Positions 1 through 43,046 are shown, numbered from the stretch's first letter. The stretch is DNA of 64,000 nucleotides from Gemella sp. zg-570 (GCF_018866345.1 NZ_CP076443.1:891501-955500); one strand, 5' to 3'. Notes: generated from the sequence alone by a model not told the origin. Numbers and translations: made by a program.

Positions 1-3000
1 TTGATGCTATCTTCTGCTTCTTTGGCTGCTTGTGTTATCTTGTCTTTTGCTACGTCTTTTTGATCAGGAGTTAGGCTAGTGTTCTTGTCTATGTCTTGGT
101 GAGCTTGGGCTTTTTCTGCTTCTACTTCACTTATTGCATCTGCTTTGGCTTTTTCTAGTTTGACTTTTTCTAAACCATTTTCTTTTGGTTGTGTTATTCC
201 GTCTTTGTCTGGCGCAGCGTTGATGTTGTCTTCTGCTTCTTTAGCAGCTTTTGTTATCTTGTCTTTTGCTGCGTCTTTTTGATCTCTGTCTAGGTTGTTG
301 TCAGCTTCTATTGCGTCGTTTGATGCTTGTTTTTCTACTTCTATTTTACCTATTGCGTCTGCTTTTTCTTTTTCTAGCTCAACTTTTGTTTTACCATTTT
401 CTTTTGGTTGTGTTATTGCATTTGTGTCTGGCGCAGCGTTGATGTTGTTTTCTGCTTCTGTTGCGGCTGCGTCTACTTTTGCTTTGGCGTCTGCTTTTTG
501 TTTGTCGCTTAAGCCTGGTGTGTTGTCTATGTCTTGGTGAGCTTGGGCTTTTTCTGCTTCTACTTCACTTATTGCATCTGCTTTGGCTTTTTCTAGTTTG
601 ACTTTTTCTAAACCATTTTCTTTTGGTTGTGTTATTCCGTCTTTGTCTGGCGCAGCGTTGATGTTGTCTTCTGCTTCTTTAGCAGCTTTTGTTATCTTGT
701 CTTTTGCTGCGTCTTTTTGATCTCTGTCTAGGTTGTTGTCAGCTTCTATTGCGTCGTTTGATGCTTGTTTTTCTACTTCTATTTTACCTATTGCGTCTGC
801 TTTTTCTTTTTCTAGCTCAACTTTTGTTTTACCATTTTCTTTTGGTTGTGTTATTGCATTTGTGTCTGGCGCAGCGTTGATGTTGGCTTCTGCTTCTTTA
901 GCGGCTGCGTCTACTTTTGCTTTGGCGTCTGCTTTTTGTTTGTCGCTTAAGCCTGGTGTGTTGTCTATGTCTTGGTGAGCTTGGGCTTTTTCTGCTTCTA
1001 CTTCACTTATTGCATCTGCTTTGGCTTTTTCTAGTTTGACTTTTTCTAAACCATTTTCTTTTGGTTGTGTTATTCCGTCTTTGTCTGGCGCAGCGTTGAT
1101 GTTGTCTTCTGCTTCTTTAGCAGCTTTTGTTATCTTGTCTTTTGCTGCGTCTTTTTGATCTCTGTCTAGGTTGTTGTCAGCTTCTATTGCGTCGTTTGAT
1201 GCTTGTTTTTCTACTTCTATTTTACCTATTGCGTCTGCTTTTTCTTTTTCTAGCTCAACTTTTGTTTTACCATTTTCTTTTGGTTGTGTTATTGCATTTG
1301 TGTCTGGCGCAGCGTTGATGTTGGCTTCTGCTTCTTTAGCGGCTGCGTCTACTTTTGCTTTGGCGTCTGCTTTTTGTTTGTCGCTTAAGCCTGGTGTGTT
1401 GTCTATGTCTTGGTGAGCTTGGGCTTTTTCTGCTTCTACTTCACTTATTGCATCTGCTTTGGCTTTTTCTAGTTTGACTTTTTCTAAACCATTTTCTTTT
1501 GGTTGTGTTATTCCGTCTTTGTCTGGCGCAGCGTTGATGTTGTCTTCTGCTTCTTTAGCAGCTTTTGTTATCTTGTCTTTTGCTGCGTCTTTTTGATCTC
1601 TGTCTAGGTTGTTGTCAGCTTCTATTGCGTCGTTTGATGCTTGTTTTTCTACTTCTATTTTACCTATTGCGTCTGCTTTTTCTTTTTCTAGCTCAACTTT
1701 TGTTTTACCATTTTCTTTTGGTTGTGTTATTGCATTTGTGTCTGGCGCAGCGTTGATGTTGGCTTCTGCTTCTTTAGCGGCTGCGTCTACTTTTGCTTTG
1801 GCGTCTGCTTTTTGTTTGTCGCTTAAGCCTGGTGTGTTGTCTATGTCTTGGTGAGCTTGGGCTTTTTCTGCTTCTACTTCACTTATTGCATCTGCTTTTG
1901 TTTGGGCTAGTTCTATTCCTGTTAAGCCGCTTGCTTTGGCTGTGTCTATTCCGTTGTTGTCTGTTGCTGCGTTGATGTCTCTTATTGCATCAGTTGCTGC
2001 TTGGTCTACTTCGTCTTTGGCTCTTTGCTGCTGTTCTGGGCTTAGGTGGTTATTTTGCTCAATTGCTGCTTTGGCGTCTGATCTGGCTAGTTCTACTTCT
2101 TCTATTGCGGCTGCTTTGGCTTTGGCCAGGTCTATTCCTGGTGTTGCTGTTTGTTTTGCTGCGTTTATGCCGTTTGTATCTGCTGCTGCGTTTACTGCTC
2201 CCATTGCATCTGCTGTTGCTGCTGCTATGGCTTGTTTAGCTAAGTCTTTGTCTGCAGGACCTACGTGTTGACTGCCGTCTATTGCTTTATTTGCTTGTCC
2301 TTGTTTGTCTGCTAGGTCTTTTAGGGCGTCTGCCTTGTTTTCTCCTAGGGTTTTAGCTGCGTTTATTTCGTTTGTGTTTGCTGCATTGTTTACTGCATCC
2401 ATTGCGGCTGCTGTTGCGGCTGCTACTTTTTCTTTTGCTGCTAATTTGTCTTCTGGTCTTAGGTCTGGGTTGTTGTTTATTGCTTCATTGACTTCGTTTT
2501 GTTTTTCTGCCAGGGCTTTTATTGCATTTACTTTGTCTGTTCCTGTTGTTTTTGCTGTGTTTAAGTCTGCATCTGTTGTTGCAGCCCCTGCTGCTAGTAT
2601 GGCTGCATTTGTTGCCGTAGCTACTGCGTCTTTAGCTTTTTGTTTGTCTTGGTCTTCTAGGCCAGCTTTGCCGTCTATTTCAGTGTCTGCATTTGTTTGG
2701 GCTTGTCCTAGCTCTTGTACTGCTGTGTCTTTTTTAGCTGAGTTTGTTGGAACGCCTTCTATAACTCTTGTTCCATTTGTTTTAGCAATTTCTACATCTC
2801 TGTCTGTAGTTGCAGCGTCGATATTGGCTTTTGCCTCTCTTGCCAGTCTTTCTACTTCTGCTTTTGTCGCTGCTTTTTCTTCAGCTGTTTGGTTGTTTCC
2901 TGGACCGTCTATATCTCTTAGTTTGTCAGCTTTACTTTGATCTATTGCATTTTTAGCATCTGTTTTTGCTCTTGAGTCTGTTGAGACGTTGTTTATGTTT

Positions 3001-38633: not shown

Positions 38634-39051
38634 AATGGAAATAAATAAAATTCTTATAAACAAGGCAATTGAAGCGACAAACTTTGCCTACGTTCCCTAC
38701 TCTAAATTTCGAGTTGGTGCTGCCCTACTTGCAAAAAATGGTAAGATATACACAGGTTGCAACATAGAAAATGCCAGCTACACACCCACCAACTGTGCAG
38801 AGCGTACAGCAATATTTAAGGCAGTAAGTGAGGGCGTTAGAGACTTTGAAAAAATAGCCGTAGTCGGAGGCCCAGACGGAAATTTATTAGAAACTTGTTC
38901 GCCGTGCGGTGTGTGTAGGCAAGTTATTGCAGAATTTGCCGATGAAAATTTTAAAATTATTCTAGGAAATTCGCATGATAATTTTAAGGTCTATAATTTT
39001 TTCGAGGAAGTTTTACCCCTTAGCTTTTCAAAAAAAGATTTGGAAAAATAA
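38623..39051 (+). CDS. cdd: Cytidine deaminase
   Basis: Cdd converts cytidine or deoxycytidine to uridine in pyrimidine salvage. The zinc site is complete: counting from the ATG at 38635, Cys54 and Glu56 in NCAERTA and Cys91/Cys94 in PCGVCRQ. The frame opens at 38623, overlapping the phosphatase stop by 11 bp. Starting at 38635 would give the more usual N-terminus MEINKIL, but neither start has a strong ribosome site. Its last 57 codons are repeated downstream in tandem. Confidence 0.93.
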   Translation: MVSKMEINKILINKAIEATNFAYVPYSKFRVGAALLAKNGKIYTGCNIENASYTPTNCAERTAIFKAVSEGVRDFEKIAVVGGPDGNLLETCSPCGVCRQVIAEFADENFKIILGNSHDNFKVYNFFEEVLPLSFSKKDLEK

Positions 39052-39430
39052 AATTTATTAGAATCTTGTTCACCGTGTGGTGTGTGTAGGCAAGTTATTG
39101 CAGAATTTGCCGATGAAAATTTTAAAATTATTCTAGGAAATTCGCATGATAATTTTAAGGTCTATAACTTTTTCGAGGAAGTTTTACCCCTTAGCTTTTC
39201 AAAAAAAGATTTGGAAAAATAAAATTTATTAGAATCTTGTTCACCGTGTGGTGTGTGTAGGCAAGTTATTGCAGAATTTGCCGATGAAAATTTTAAAATT
39301 ATTCTAGGAAATTCGCATGATAATTTTAAGGTCTATAACTTTTTCGAGGAAGTTTTACCCCTTAGCTTTTCAAAAAAGGATTTAGAAAAATAAAATTTGT
39401 TAGAAACTTGTTCACCATGTGGTGTGCGAA
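38881..39430 (+). repeat. Tandem 171-bp copies of the cdd 3' end
   Basis: The final 171 bp of cdd (57 codons including the PCGVCRQ zinc motif and the stop) recur twice in full and once partly, with matching positions at 38890, 39061, 39232 and 39403. The copies differ by only a few bases. The last one breaks off after the zinc-motif codons near 39425. They have no start codon, so they look like amplification debris, not genes. Confidence 0.93.
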
Positions 39431-39537: not shown

Positions 39538-39566
39538 TTGACAATTAGTTTTTTATAAAATATAAT
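39538..39566 (+). promoter_or_regulatory. Consensus promoter of the peptide cassette
   Basis: Perfect TTGACA (39538-39543), 17-bp spacer, TATAAT (39561-39566). It lies about 100 bp before the precursor peptide gene and implies strong constitutive or regulated expression of the cassette. Confidence 0.85.
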
Positions 39567-39587
39567 TTAAAAAATAAACAAGGTGAG

Positions 39588-39632
39588 GTGATTAAAACTA
39601 ATTTTAGCTATTATAAATATTTAAAGTATTAA
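39588..39632 (+). CDS. Possible 14-codon leader ORF
   Basis: GTG at 39588, preceded by AAGGTGA, opens a 14-residue aromatic/lysine-rich peptide (VIKTNFSYYKYLKY) in the cassette leader, 31 bp before the precursor gene. It may be a chance frame, a leader peptide or a second short product. Confidence 0.2.
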   Translation: MIKTNFSYYKYLKY

Positions 39633-39663
39633 TTATATATTAAATAATTAGGAGTAAATAAAA

Positions 39664-39777
39664 ATGGAAAATCAAGATACAGTGTTAAATTCTGAAAAAG
39701 AAGTTGTTTTTTCTGTAGATTCATCTGTTATTGAAATTGAATCATTACCAGAAGTAAAAGTTACAGTAAAATGGTAA
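39664..39777 (+). CDS. 37-residue putative precursor peptide ending in Trp
   Basis: A well-placed AGGAG site precedes an ATG encoding a 37-residue peptide. The N-terminal part is acidic and leader-like (MENQDTVLNSEKEVV), and the C-terminus EVKVTVKW is basic/hydrophobic with Trp as the last residue. It is the first gene after a consensus promoter and is followed by a hairpin and then by a protease, an exporter and an isoprenoid-synthase-like gene, the layout of a modified-peptide locus. By analogy with ComX, whose tryptophan is prenylated by ComQ, Trp37 is the proposed modification site. I do not recognise a known family. Confidence 0.6.
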   Translation: MENQDTVLNSEKEVVFSVDSSVIEIESLPEVKVTVKW

Positions 39778-39781
39778 AATC

Positions 39782-39806
39782 AGGACTTGGATTTATTCCG
39801 AGTCCT
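39782..39806 (+). terminator. Hairpin after the precursor gene, likely partial terminator
   Basis: A 9-bp stem with one G-T pair (AGGACTTGG/CCGAGTCCT) and a 7-base loop is followed by TTTATTATA. Placed between precursor and processing genes, it could raise the ratio of peptide to downstream transcripts. Confidence 0.6.
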
Positions 39807-39832
39807 TTATTATAATATAGGAAATTTTATAT

Positions 39833-40568
39833 ATGAGATTTATTCTTAAAAGAAATATGATAATTATAAAAATAAAAATAGATGAAATATATTATAAGTT
39901 TTTAGTTGATACAGGTTCTGAAAGAAGTTTTATAGTGAGAAATACAAACAAAATATTTTAGAAAAAATAAAAGTTAAAGGAATTGGAGAAGAAGAATTTT
40001 TAAAAAATAAATACATATTTCCAAAAATAAATATAGATAATACAATTATTCATAAGGTAGAGATTTTAGAGAAAAAAAGAAATAGTTTATTTTTATATTT
40101 AGGAATAGATGGAATATTAGGTTGGGACATATTAAAAAAACTAGATTTGCTTATTGACATGAAAATAAAATATTCAGCCTTGTAACAGAAACTACTCAAA
40201 ATAAGAAAATAGGAACGCCTATCATATCAGACAAGCAATTAGTAATAGAAATGAAATATAAGAATGATTTGCATAGTGCTTTGATAGATTTAGGAGCTAC
40301 TGAATCATTTGTAACTCAAGAAGTTTTCAACAACTATGATGTTATTTGGGAAAGAAATATTGTTCTAGGAATAAACGGTATTAAATTGATTAAAGTAGCA
40401 ACAATTAAAAATATTATTTTAAACATTGCTGGAATAGAATATAAATCTAGGAAACTTTTAATTAAATCAGAAAATTTTAACTGGAAATTTAAATTAGGGA
40501 TGGATTTTTTTGAAAATAGAAAAATTTTCCTGAGAAATTCAATGAAGGAGATGGTTATATTTGAATAA
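39833..40568 (+). pseudogene. Two-lobed retropepsin-like aspartic protease, two frameshifts
   Basis: Three frame segments make one protein of 245 residues if one A is added near 39955 (AAAA to AAAAA) and one G near 40160 (ATGG); the length then divides by three exactly. Lobe 1 has the active-site motif FLVDTGSERSFI (Asp26) and the matching C-terminal IDGILGWDIL. Lobe 2 has ALIDLGATESFV (Asp153, with Leu in place of the usual Thr) and KLGMDFFE. Such soluble retropepsin-like proteins could mature the adjacent peptide. AGGAAA precedes the ATG. It overlaps the exporter start. It is either a decayed gene or an intact one with sequence errors. Confidence 0.7.
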
Positions 40569-41784
40569 AAATTATTTAAAAGAGCTATTGTTGATTGGAA
40601 ATGGATTAGGTCAAATTGGAAGTAGTGTCTTATCTTTTGCATTAGGTTTATATATTTTTAAAGTACTTAATTCAGTATTTTTATATAGTTTATCACAAAT
40701 TATCGCTCCCTTAGTAGCCCTATTATTGCTTCCTATTCTTGGTAGTATTGTTGATAAATTTAATAGGAATAAAATTATAAAGTTTTCTCAATTTGCAAGT
40801 TGTATAGCATTAGTATTATTTTATTTACTGAATGGAGAAAATGAGGTAAATTTTGCTAATATAGTCGTGTTGCTGATTATTTTGAAGATTTCGGATCAGT
40901 TTCTATCAACTACACTTACTGCATCAACGAGTAGTCTAATAAATGAAAAAAATATACAATCATTTCGTTCCCATCTACAATTGATTCAAGCAGCAAGTAT
41001 GATTTTATCTCCAATTATAGCAGTTTTTATATATGATAAATTATCTATTGCTGGAGCAGTTATAATATCAGCTGTTATAGAATTTTTTGTTTTAATTATT
41101 TTTTGGAATATAGACTTTAAATATAATAAAATAAAAAATAGTACTAATAATTCACTATTATTCATGTTTAAAGAAGGAATGAAATTTATTTTTAGCTATA
41201 AAAAAATAATATTTGGAATGTTATTTGTTTTAGTAGTAAATTTTATAGTTGGTGTAATAAATATAGGTCTGCCATATTTGCAAATACAGGTATTAAAATT
41301 TTCAAATACTGCTTATGCAATAAATGATAGTATTTTTGCAATTGGTCTTATATTAGGAGCATTAATTACAACAACAATAAATACCAGCACAAAGTTAAGA
41401 TTTGCTAGATATTCTATTATTCTTATGGGGATAGTAACACTTATTTTAAGTGGTCTTTTAGGATTAGATTTTTCTAATAATACATGGTATTTTGTAATAG
41501 CTATTTATTCAATGTCTATAGCACTTTTTATGACTATAGGAAATATATTGTTATCAAGCTGGTCTATGATTAAAATTCCTAAAGAATTCCAAGGAAGAGT
41601 ATTTGCTATATTAAATACCGTTACCCAAATAACAATTCCTCTAAGTATACTAATATATGGATACATGTTTGCTAGGCTAGATGCAGGGATAATATTTTTT
41701 GTTTCAGCTGGCATGTTATTGATAGTGTCTATACCTATTCCCGGGATATTTAAAATAAATCTAGCCAATGATGAATTGGAGTGA
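40561..41784 (+). CDS. MFS transporter, putative peptide or drug exporter
   Basis: This 407-residue protein has about twelve hydrophobic helices and resembles the MFS_3/macrolide-efflux-like group, with GSIVDKFNRNKIIKFSQ as the loop 2-3 motif. It starts at TTG 40561 after GAAGGAG, overlapping the end of the protease frame by 8 bp. In its cassette it is the likely exporter or immunity protein for the small peptide product, which is inference from context. No ABC exporter with a peptidase domain is present here. Confidence 0.85.
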   Translation: MNKNYLKELLLIGNGLGQIGSSVLSFALGLYIFKVLNSVFLYSLSQIIAPLVALLLLPILGSIVDKFNRNKIIKFSQFASCIALVLFYLLNGENEVNFANIVVLLIILKISDQFLSTTLTASTSSLINEKNIQSFRSHLQLIQAASMILSPIIAVFIYDKLSIAGAVIISAVIEFFVLIIFWNIDFKYNKIKNSTNNSLLFMFKEGMKFIFSYKKIIFGMLFVLVVNFIVGVINIGLPYLQIQVLKFSNTAYAINDSIFAIGLILGALITTTINTSTKLRFARYSIILMGIVTLILSGLLGLDFSNNTWYFVIAIYSMSIALFMTIGNILLSSWSMIKIPKEFQGRVFAILNTVTQITIPLSILIYGYMFARLDAGIIFFVSAGMLLIVSIPIPGIFKINLANDELE

Positions 41785-41790
41785 TTATTT

Positions 41791-42642
41791 ATGAAAGTTA
41801 GTATGGTAAAAGAAATTTTAGAAATTACCAGTGAAGAATTAGAATATTTTTATAATATTATAAATGATAGTTTGAATTTTTCACTTGGGAGAAGTTTAGT
41901 ATTTTTGGAAGATACAAGAAAGTTACACTCCCTGTCGATTTATTCTTTATATCCATTAATGTTTAGGGAAAAATTTAATTTATCAAATAAACAGTTGGAA
42001 GAATTGATTGTATTTTCTCATAATCATTTTACATCATTATTTTTATTAGATAAAATTTATGATTCGCAGAAAATTGACGAACCTCTAGAATTATTACTTT
42101 TATTAGAACAATATTCAATAAATATGAAGTATTTGAGTAATTTTCCAGAAGATGTATATATTATAGAAAATGTTGCTAAAACATTGACAAGTTTGTTTAA
42201 TGAAAAATACTCTTATGAATATAATAAAATTCTAAATTTGCAAGAAGAAGAAAAATATGTGCATAGTAAATATTCATTTGCAAAAATTGCTTTGTACCTA
42301 TATCATAAAATATCAAAAGAATATATGAGTGAAGAAATAATCAATGAATTGTATGAATCACACGACAAGTTTGCATATGGAAGGCAGATTTTAGATGATC
42401 TTGAGGATTTCATAGATGATTATAAAGCTAAACAATTTAATATTTACGTAAATAGATATTATATTGAATATGGAGAAGAAACTATACCAAAATATGATAA
42501 AAAGTTATTTCTTAATTTGATTTTAGAAGCAAAAAAATACTTTATAGAAGCTAAAGAAATATTATCACAAGAATGTATATATTGGCAGAAATATATACAT
42601 TTTTATATAAAGAATTGTGATAGATACATATTAGACAAATAA
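41791..42642 (+). CDS. Class I isoprenoid-synthase-like protein (putative peptide prenyltransferase)
   Basis: This 283-residue all-helical protein has the two Asp-rich motifs of polyprenyl synthases: a degenerate first motif LLDKIYD (Asp87, Asp91; the second Asp is Lys) and a strong second motif QILDDLEDF (Asp202, Asp203, Asp206). Length and motif spacing fit the isoprenoid synthase fold. ComQ, which prenylates ComX tryptophan, belongs to the same superfamily, and the cassette encodes a peptide ending in Trp, so peptide prenylation is proposed. Making a free isoprenoid is the alternative. GGAG lies in the end of the exporter gene, 6 bp upstream. Confidence 0.6.
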   Translation: MKVSMVKEILEITSEELEYFYNIINDSLNFSLGRSLVFLEDTRKLHSLSIYSLYPLMFREKFNLSNKQLEELIVFSHNHFTSLFLLDKIYDSQKIDEPLELLLLLEQYSINMKYLSNFPEDVYIIENVAKTLTSLFNEKYSYEYNKILNLQEEEKYVHSKYSFAKIALYLYHKISKEYMSEEIINELYESHDKFAYGRQILDDLEDFIDDYKAKQFNIYVNRYYIEYGEETIPKYDKKLFLNLILEAKKYFIEAKEILSQECIYWQKYIHFYIKNCDRYILDK

Positions 42643-42649
42643 ATTAATT

Positions 42650-43000
42650 GGTAAAACTAATAACAAGCAACATGGACGGAAAATTTCTTAATAGTGAACA
42701 CAAGATTACAAAAGATAATTTAAAGGCGGTATAAGACTCTAGAAAAAAATTGCGTATAATTTTAGTAGCAAGTGGTCGTACCTATTACGAAGCCTTAGAA
42801 GTAATTACAGAAGCAAATTTCAAACCTAAAATTTCAAGCCTAACCAGAGATTAAAATTTTGAAATTATTTTAGGAAATTCACAAGATAATTTTAAGGTCT
42901 ATAATTTTTTCGAGGAAGTTTTACCTCTTAGCTTTTCAAAAAAAGATTTAGAAAAATAAAATTTATTAGGAACTTATTCGCCATGTGGTGTAAAAAAATA
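42650..43000 (+). pseudogene. Fused remnant of a second HAD phosphatase-cdd copy
   Basis: About 42656-42840 matches the first 200 bp of the HAD gene at 37758 (ACATGGACGGAA, CGTACCTATTACGAAGCCTT), with stops and indels. It is joined directly to about 42855-42995, which matches the cdd 3' end. The remnant breaks off after CCATGTGGTGT, the same place where the cdd debris left of the cassette ends. It shows that the HAD-cdd locus was duplicated and that the cassette lies between the copies. Confidence 0.88.
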
Positions 43001-43017
43001 TTTAAAAAATAAAAAAG

Positions 43018-43046
43018 GTCTTAAATTATAATATATAATTTAAGAC
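43018..43046 (+). terminator. Intrinsic terminator after the HAD-cdd remnant
   Basis: 13-bp stem GTCTTAAATTATA/TATAATTTAAGAC with a 3-base loop and a T-rich tail. It probably ends the cassette transcript. Confidence 0.8.

What the first reader, a model, noticed from the sequence alone, without database searches (positions are those of the whole stretch)
39538..42642. Compact peptide cassette: Trp-terminated precursor, retropepsin-like protease, MFS exporter, isoprenoid-synthase-like enzyme
Seen: a perfect TTGACA-17-TATAAT promoter, a 37-aa peptide ending EVKVTVKW, a hairpin, then three overlapping or closely spaced genes. The last has both Asp-rich motifs of isoprenoid synthases (DKIYD, DDLED). 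Known: ComQ, from the same superfamily, prenylates a Trp of the ComX pheromone. Inference: the cassette makes a prenylated Trp peptide that is cut by an aspartic protease and exported by MFS. No ComP/ComA-like pair is nearby, and I know of no described system with this gene set.
Basis: partly seen in the sequence, partly recalled or inferred. Interest (0 to 1): 0.93.

Follow-up and report, generated by a model that had tools for sequence, protein, structure and literature searches.

The report
Prenylated-tryptophan peptide gene cassette
A four-gene cassette, found also in an oral streptococcus and a staphylococcal relative, very probably makes a tiny peptide whose last residue, a tryptophan, is decorated with an isoprenoid lipid, trimmed by a retrovirus-like protease and exported; in this genome the protease gene is broken.

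Summary
Promoter, 37-aa Trp-terminated peptide, hairpin, MFS gene and 283-aa enzyme are all present. The protease gene is split by two frameshifts, so this copy may not be productive. The enzyme has no Pfam or NCBIfam family, but its model (pTM 0.81) matches only class I isoprenoid synthases among the top 50 PDB hits. Relatives are rare: one of the other 156 species of the order and one of 285 Streptococcus genomes carry an intact one. Both of these loci, Streptococcus mitis SK642 and Mammaliicoccus sciuri NCTC 12103, contain the same four genes, with an intact two-domain retropepsin and a homologous short peptide ending in Trp (3 of 3 loci). Gene order differs in M. sciuri and the flanks are unrelated. 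The closest described system is PalX-PalQ of Paenibacillus, where a trans-IDS-like enzyme prenylates a C-terminal Trp. Its key spacings (DxxxD; QxxDxxxD) are shared. Unlike PalX, this precursor has no NHLP leader, and a retropepsin and an MFS replace the sensor kinase. Best reading: a compact prenyl-Trp RiPP cassette with its own protease and exporter. Chemistry and biological role (antimicrobial or signal) are untested. New variant of a known kind.

The parts
39538..39566 (+). Perfect sigma-70-type promoter, TTGACA-17-TATAAT
   Evidence: S. mitis has an equally perfect one at the same place before its peptide gene (L006:5788-5816)
39650..39654 (+). Shine-Dalgarno AGGAG of the peptide gene
   Evidence: read from sequence; flagged
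39664..39777 (+). Precursor peptide, 37 aa, MENQDTVLNSEKEVVFSVDSSVIEIESLPEVKVTVKW; C-terminal Trp; presumed short leader plus core of about 8 residues (EVKVTVKW)
   Evidence: homologues in L006:5847-5966 and L005:8890-8961; dN 0.41, dS 1.33 against S. mitis
39782..39806 (+). Hairpin between the peptide gene and the rest of the operon (attenuator or partial terminator, or RNA-stability element)
   Evidence: z -3.6; different hairpin sequences at the same place in S. mitis (z -4.8) and M. sciuri (z -4.6)
39833..39961 (+). Protease gene, piece 1: start and catalytic VDTGSE of domain 1; then a stop after a frameshift
39934..40183 (+). Protease gene, piece 2 (other frame): rest of domain 1 with IDGILGWDIL
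40170..40568 (+). Protease gene, piece 3 (third frame): domain 2 with LIDLGATESF and KLGMDFF; an ATG-started ORF exists at 40251
40561..41784 (+). MFS transporter, 407 aa: putative exporter and/or self-protection
   Evidence: TIGR00900 E 9.8e-41, Mef-like; 56% and 33% identical to the cassette MFS of S. mitis and M. sciuri
41791..42642 (+). Trans-isoprenyl-diphosphate-synthase-like enzyme, 283 aa: putative C-terminal Trp prenyltransferase
42049..42063 (+). First Asp-rich motif, D87-K-I-Y-D91
   Evidence: invariant D87, K88, Y90, D91 in three homologues
42385..42408 (+). Q199-I-L-D202-D203-L-E-D206: second Asp-rich motif with upstream Gln, same spacing as PalQ Q197/D200/D204
   Evidence: note that canonical synthases of this genome carry YQIxDDxLD as well
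38880..39426 (+). Flank: tandem copies (171-bp period) of the 3' end of the upstream cytidine deaminase gene; not part of the cassette
42640..43020 (+). Flank: decayed second copy of the upstream HAD-hydrolase and cdd region; the cassette sits between the duplicates
   Evidence: 83% over 218 bp and 89% over 170 bp

Best explanation
The locus is a compact RiPP-like cassette. A constitutive-looking promoter makes a very short precursor whose last residue is Trp. The trans-IDS-like enzyme (donor prenyl diphosphate at D87/D91 with Mg, Trp indole at Q199/D202) transfers a prenyl group, probably C10-C15, to the indole C3 of the C-terminal Trp. A two-domain retropepsin-like protease removes the N-terminal part, leaving a core of about 7-8 residues with alternating Ile/Val before the Trp. 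The MFS protein exports the lipidated peptide and/or protects the producer. The hairpin after the peptide gene would keep precursor levels above those of the enzymes. Shown: the gene set, its conservation in three genera, homologous Trp-terminated peptides, isoprenoid-synthase fold, protease and MFS families, presence of canonical prenyl-diphosphate synthases. Inferred: Trp prenylation, cleavage, export, order of steps, chain length. In this genome the protease is frameshifted, so this copy probably makes modified but uncut peptide, or relies on another protease, or is decaying. I think an antimicrobial or competition peptide somewhat more likely than a signal, because no receptor gene travels with the cassette and a decayed streptococcal copy keeps only the MFS intact.
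For: Same four families together in S. mitis (same order) and M. sciuri (peptide-enzyme-protease-MFS) with unrelated flanks. Peptides end in Trp in 3 of 3 loci, share VxExES, and have Ile/Val at -2 and -4. Enzyme fold: the top 50 PDB hits are isoprenoid-synthase-fold enzymes, including MoeN5 and the Trp prenyltransferase Ord1. Profile-profile match to PalQ-like enzymes of Paenibacillaceae, E 2.8e-4 over 160 columns, against 0.26-0.8 for shuffled or reversed profiles. FARM and SARM spacing identical to PalQ. In 29 of 29 Paenibacillaceae NHLP loci read, the peptide has Trp within its last three residues, and 28 of 29 show a PalQ-like enzyme next door. Protease in both relatives has two DTG/DLG domains and passes Pfam cut-offs. 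Donor supply: two canonical synthases in the genome. Perfect promoters in two loci and hairpins at equivalent places in three. Decayed Streptococcus copy: MFS intact at 99% aa identity, dN 0.004 against dS 0.049.
Against: No chemistry was tested. The Gln before SARM is not diagnostic, since canonical synthases carry it too. Only three intact enzyme genes are known, so covariation cannot be tested. The profile match to PalQ is weak, and canonical synthases also match weakly (E 1.8e-3, 47 columns; two sequences only). The window's protease is broken. The protease fold model failed (pLDDT 31). The MFS retention in one streptococcus may simply reflect recent decay.
Confidence: 0.66

Rival explanations
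1. Same chemistry, but the product is a pheromone, ComX-like, read by a receptor encoded elsewhere in the genome.
For: The known Trp-prenylated linear peptides of Bacillota are or are suspected to be signals: ComX, and PalX next to the histidine kinase PalP (PMC10853753). The genome has one HisKA_3 kinase, at 106 kb, far from the cassette.
Against: No kinase or regulator gene travels with the cassette in any of three genera. The perfect constitutive-type promoter argues against autoinduction. Sporadic presence with no receptor is unusual for a signal.
Confidence: 0.3
2. The 283-aa protein is a small terpene synthase or prenyl-diphosphate synthase that makes a free isoprenoid exported by the MFS; the short peptide is a regulator or chance ORF.
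For: The fold is shared with terpene and prenyl-diphosphate synthases.
Against: The peptide is conserved with purifying selection and homology across genera, always carries the terminal Trp, and is the promoter-proximal gene. A protease has no role in this reading.
Confidence: 0.12
3. The cassette is a decaying, non-functional relic in this genome; the intact system exists only in relatives. (Compatible with the best explanation for the family as a whole.)
For: Two frameshifts in the protease. A relic of a second protease copy at G000:C1:171709-171885. The flanks are broken duplicates of HAD and cdd.
Against: Peptide, MFS and enzyme are intact. Enzyme dN 0.34 against dS 1.43 and MFS 0.34 against 1.81 versus S. 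mitis.
Confidence: 0.45

Closest known systems
PalX-PalQ of Paenibacillus alvei and relatives (C-terminal Trp prenyltransferase; PMC10853753)
   Same: Trans-IDS-like enzyme of about 300 aa paired with a short peptide ending in Trp; FARM D..D spacing 4 (D89/D93 versus D87/D91); Q..D...D spacing at SARM (Q197/D200/D204 versus Q199/D202/D206); weak profile-profile similarity
   Different: PalX has an NHLP leader of about 70 aa and the cluster a histidine kinase PalP, with no dedicated protease or MFS; here the precursor is 23-39 aa with no NHLP, plus retropepsin and MFS; enzyme identity too low for plain BLAST to be convincing
ComQ-ComX of Bacillus (ComQXPA)
   Same: Isoprenoid-synthase-superfamily enzyme next to a short Trp peptide
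   Different: ComX Trp is internal, ComQ lacks SARM (PMC10853753), and ComP/ComA are linked; here Trp is terminal, SARM is present, no kinase is linked, and there is no ComX or polyprenyl_synt Pfam match
MoeN5 and Ord1 (prenyltransferases with isoprenoid-synthase fold, PDB 6j8w/5b00, 9v4j)
   Same: Fold; transfer of prenyl to a non-IPP acceptor (Ord1: free Trp, per PMC13290415; MoeN5: from my own knowledge)
   Different: About 11-16% identity in Foldseek alignments; acceptors are not peptides
Bacterial retropepsin-like proteases (APRc of Rickettsia PMC4140852; P. aeruginosa enzymes PMC12239564)
   Same: Retropepsin-like aspartic proteases in bacteria (titles and abstracts)
   Different: Here two domains in one chain and linked to a peptide-modification cassette

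Membership tests
PalX-PalQ type C-terminal Trp prenylation | Precursor ends in Trp (PalQ tolerates no C-terminal extension) | tested here: met
   3 of 3 loci end in W
PalX-PalQ type C-terminal Trp prenylation | Enzyme with isoprenoid-synthase fold, FARM and SARM | tested here: met
PalX-PalQ type C-terminal Trp prenylation | Sequence membership in the PalQ family | tested here: inconclusive
   hhalign probability 41%, E 2.8e-4, against 14.8% and 1.8e-3 for two canonical synthases
PalX-PalQ type C-terminal Trp prenylation | NHLP leader (TIGR03793) | tested here: not met
   no match in NCBIfam scan of the peptide; no TIGR03793 match in the whole genome
PalX-PalQ type C-terminal Trp prenylation | Measured prenyl transfer to Trp | not testable with these tools
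   needs enzyme assay
ComQXPA quorum sensing | ComX-family precursor with internal Trp | tested here: not met
   no Pfam match for the peptide; Trp is the last residue
ComQXPA quorum sensing | Linked ComP/ComA two-component pair | tested here: not met
   none in the three cassettes; single HisKA_3 kinase 0.7-0.8 Mb away
ComQXPA quorum sensing | ComQ lacks SARM | tested here: not met
   DDLED present and invariant DD..D in three homologues
Canonical trans-isoprenyl diphosphate synthase (PF00348) | Match to PF00348 | tested here: not met
   no Pfam family at E<=1; the genome has two other true members
Retropepsin-like aspartic protease (A2) | DTG and hydrophobic-Gly motifs, Pfam over cut-off | tested here: met
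   in S. mitis and M. sciuri; the window gene has both domains but is frameshifted
RiPP pathway | Ribosomal precursor plus linked modifying enzyme, protease and exporter | tested here: met
   gene set conserved in three genera
RiPP pathway | Modified mature product | not testable with these tools
   needs mass spectrometry

The most novel reading that the evidence does not exclude
A previously undescribed class of lipidated RiPP, made by a four-gene mobile cassette in human- and animal-associated cocci, in which a dedicated two-domain retropepsin matures a minimal (23-39 aa) precursor with a prenylated C-terminal Trp, and the MFS is both exporter and immunity protein of an antimicrobial.
Probability: 0.42. 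Interest if true: 0.82.

Novelty: new variant of a known kind. Interest (0 to 1): 0.68.

Why it matters
Few bacterial peptides are known to be prenylated on Trp, and the known linear ones (ComX, PalX) come from Bacillus and Paenibacillus. This cassette would extend the chemistry to Streptococcus, Mammaliicoccus and the small-genome coccus of this window. Its precursor is much smaller and lacks a leader of known type. It would also assign a role in peptide maturation to a bacterial retropepsin. Everything needed for a laboratory test fits in about 3 kb.

Tried and rejected
Enzyme searched by single sequence in genome contigs (none) and in plasmids and phages: only a weak Hymenobacter plasmid hit, kept as a side note. 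Viral contigs with the three-sequence alignment: none. Sampling of 399 Bacilli genomes with the two-sequence alignment and 376 Lactobacillales genomes with the three-sequence alignment found no further intact copy; weak hits G695 and G896 were discarded (E about 1e-3, short). Pfam, NCBIfam and PDB sequence searches with the enzyme gave nothing. Protease structure prediction failed and is not used. Programmed frameshifting of the protease was considered: I saw no canonical slippery heptamer, and the first junction also lacks several residues against S. mitis, so I treat it as disruption. The Gln upstream of SARM was considered as a diagnostic for Trp prenyltransferases and dropped as diagnostic, because canonical synthases share it. 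Literature searches found no paper on this gene set in the held library.

Full report
What is in the window. The operon starts with a perfect TTGACA-17-TATAAT promoter (39538-39566), then a 37-codon gene with a good Shine-Dalgarno that ends EVKVTVKW (39664-39777). A strong hairpin follows, then protease sequence, an MFS gene (40561-41784) and a 283-codon gene (41791-42642). The protease is not one gene here: tblastn of the intact S. mitis protein gives three consecutive matches in three frames. So two frameshifts split it, the first with a small length difference against S. mitis.

Rarity and relatives. The enzyme has no Pfam or NCBIfam match. Among 157 genomes of the order only the window's genome and one other carry it. 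Two homologous loci with names were found: Streptococcus mitis SK642 (54% identity) and Mammaliicoccus sciuri NCTC 12103 (34%; the same locus as G066). Among 285 Streptococcus genomes only S. mitis SK642 has it intact, and one other (G687) has a decayed copy. Samples of 399 Bacilli and 376 Lactobacillales genomes gave no more. The window's own organism shares an order but not a family with M. sciuri and has a 1.56-Mb genome. I suspect Gemellaceae, which is inference.

The four genes travel together. S. mitis: peptide, protease, MFS, enzyme, in the same order as the window. M. sciuri: peptide, enzyme, protease, MFS. The flanking genes differ completely. The cassettes are poorer in G+C than their surroundings: 0.236 versus 0.323 for the whole window, 0.285 versus 0.416 for S. 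mitis flanks, 0.228 versus 0.33 for M. sciuri flanks. This fits a horizontally moving unit of exactly four genes. Both relatives have an intact protease with two aspartic-protease domains, over the Pfam cut-offs.

The peptide is real and its Trp is kept. The three peptides are MENQDTVLNSEKEVVFSVDSSVIEIESLPEVKVTVKW, MKSNKEDLMGKAELLTDFSVDSSVVEIESLGEITIKIKW and MENKEVVETVIETESNPRITISW. Window and S. mitis score above all 20,000 shuffles, and window and M. sciuri are reached by 10 of 20,000. dN is 0.41 and dS 1.33 between the first two. All end in Trp with Ile/Val at -2 and -4. A perfect promoter precedes the S. mitis gene, and a hairpin of different sequence follows the peptide gene in each locus.

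The enzyme. AlphaFold2 on three sequences gives pTM 0.81 and an all-alpha fold. The Foldseek hits listed (top 50, probability 0.98-1.00, though E-values are only 0.01-0.1) are class I isoprenoid-synthase-fold proteins: MoeN5, polyprenyl synthases, terpene synthases, and the Trp prenyltransferase Ord1. D87..D91 and Q199..D202D203..D206 are invariant in the three homologues. PalQ uses D89/D93 and Q197/D200/D204, with the same spacings. As a control, canonical synthases of this genome also have YQIxDDxLD, so the Gln fits a Trp prenyltransferase but does not prove one.

Comparison with PalQ. Of 29 peptides read, all have Trp in the last three positions (10 end exactly in Trp), and 28 show a PalQ-like enzyme in the fetched stretch; the remaining stretch is short. 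Profile-profile comparison of our three enzymes with these gives E 2.8e-4 over 160 columns, aligning both Asp-rich motifs. Five column-shuffled profiles and one reversed profile give 0.26-0.8, and two canonical synthases give 1.8e-3 over 47 columns. So the enzyme works most plausibly like PalQ. Membership in the same family is likely but not settled by sequence.

Mechanism. Precursor made in excess; prenylation of the terminal Trp; leader removal by the retropepsin; export by the MFS. The first modification step rests on fold, motifs and the PalQ analogy; cleavage and export rest on gene linkage and family function. Donor supply is plausible, since the genome has two canonical prenyl-diphosphate synthases. 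For the role, no receptor gene is linked in any locus. The decayed streptococcal copy (G687) has lost the peptide, most of the protease and most of the enzyme but keeps an intact MFS with 4 aa changes (dN 0.004, dS 0.049). That hints at self-protection, hence an antimicrobial, but one case is weak evidence and the divergence may predate the decay.

State of this copy. The frameshifted protease, a relic of another copy of the same protease elsewhere in the genome (G000:C1:171709-171885), and broken duplicates of the HAD and cdd genes on both sides suggest repeated gain and loss. Peptide, MFS and enzyme are intact here, so decay of the protease is recent or another protease serves.

Novelty. No paper in the held library describes this gene set. 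Trp prenylation of peptides by trans-IDS-like enzymes is known (PMC10853753, PMC13290415). The minimal leader, the two-domain retropepsin and the MFS are the new features. I rate it a new variant of a known kind.

Noticed in passing
window 38880-39426 and 42640-43020: The 3' end of the cytidine deaminase gene is tandemly repeated (171-bp period, 3.2 copies, 97% match), and a decayed copy of the HAD-hydrolase/cdd region lies on the other side of the cassette.
   Followed up: partly
L053:8725-8880 (G000:C1:171709-171885, minus strand): Relic of a second copy of the same protease (44-47% identical to the S. mitis one) in intergenic DNA of the same genome.
   Followed up: partly
L053:9007-9440: Three TPP riboswitch aptamers with equal scores in tandem (165-bp period) in front of thi-type genes; like the cdd copies, a short segment repeated in tandem in this genome.
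   Followed up: partly
L016:5878-8205 (Hymenobacter sp. DG01 plasmid NZ_CP040937.1): Isoprenoid-synthase-like protein of 309 aa (DKLVD, FDDVED) next to an M50-protease-like protein and a 49-aa peptide with one internal Trp; profile match to PalQ-like enzymes E 5.7e-6. Possible further prenyl-Trp RiPP in Bacteroidota.
   Followed up: partly
L018-L047 (probably Paenibacillaceae): PalX-like peptides fall into types by ending: ...W, ...W plus one residue (WG, WF, WP), and ...CGPWR[STD]. PalQ is reported to tolerate no C-terminal extension, so the enzymes of the latter types may act differently.
   Followed up: no
window 1-1978: 438-bp tandem repeat, 4.1 copies at 99% identity, looks like the minus-strand coding region of a repetitive protein running off the window.
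   Followed up: no
L012:7900-9830 (Streptococcus genome G687): Decayed copy of the cassette: only the MFS gene intact, promoter region partly kept, insertion of a streptococcal repeat-like element.
   Followed up: yes
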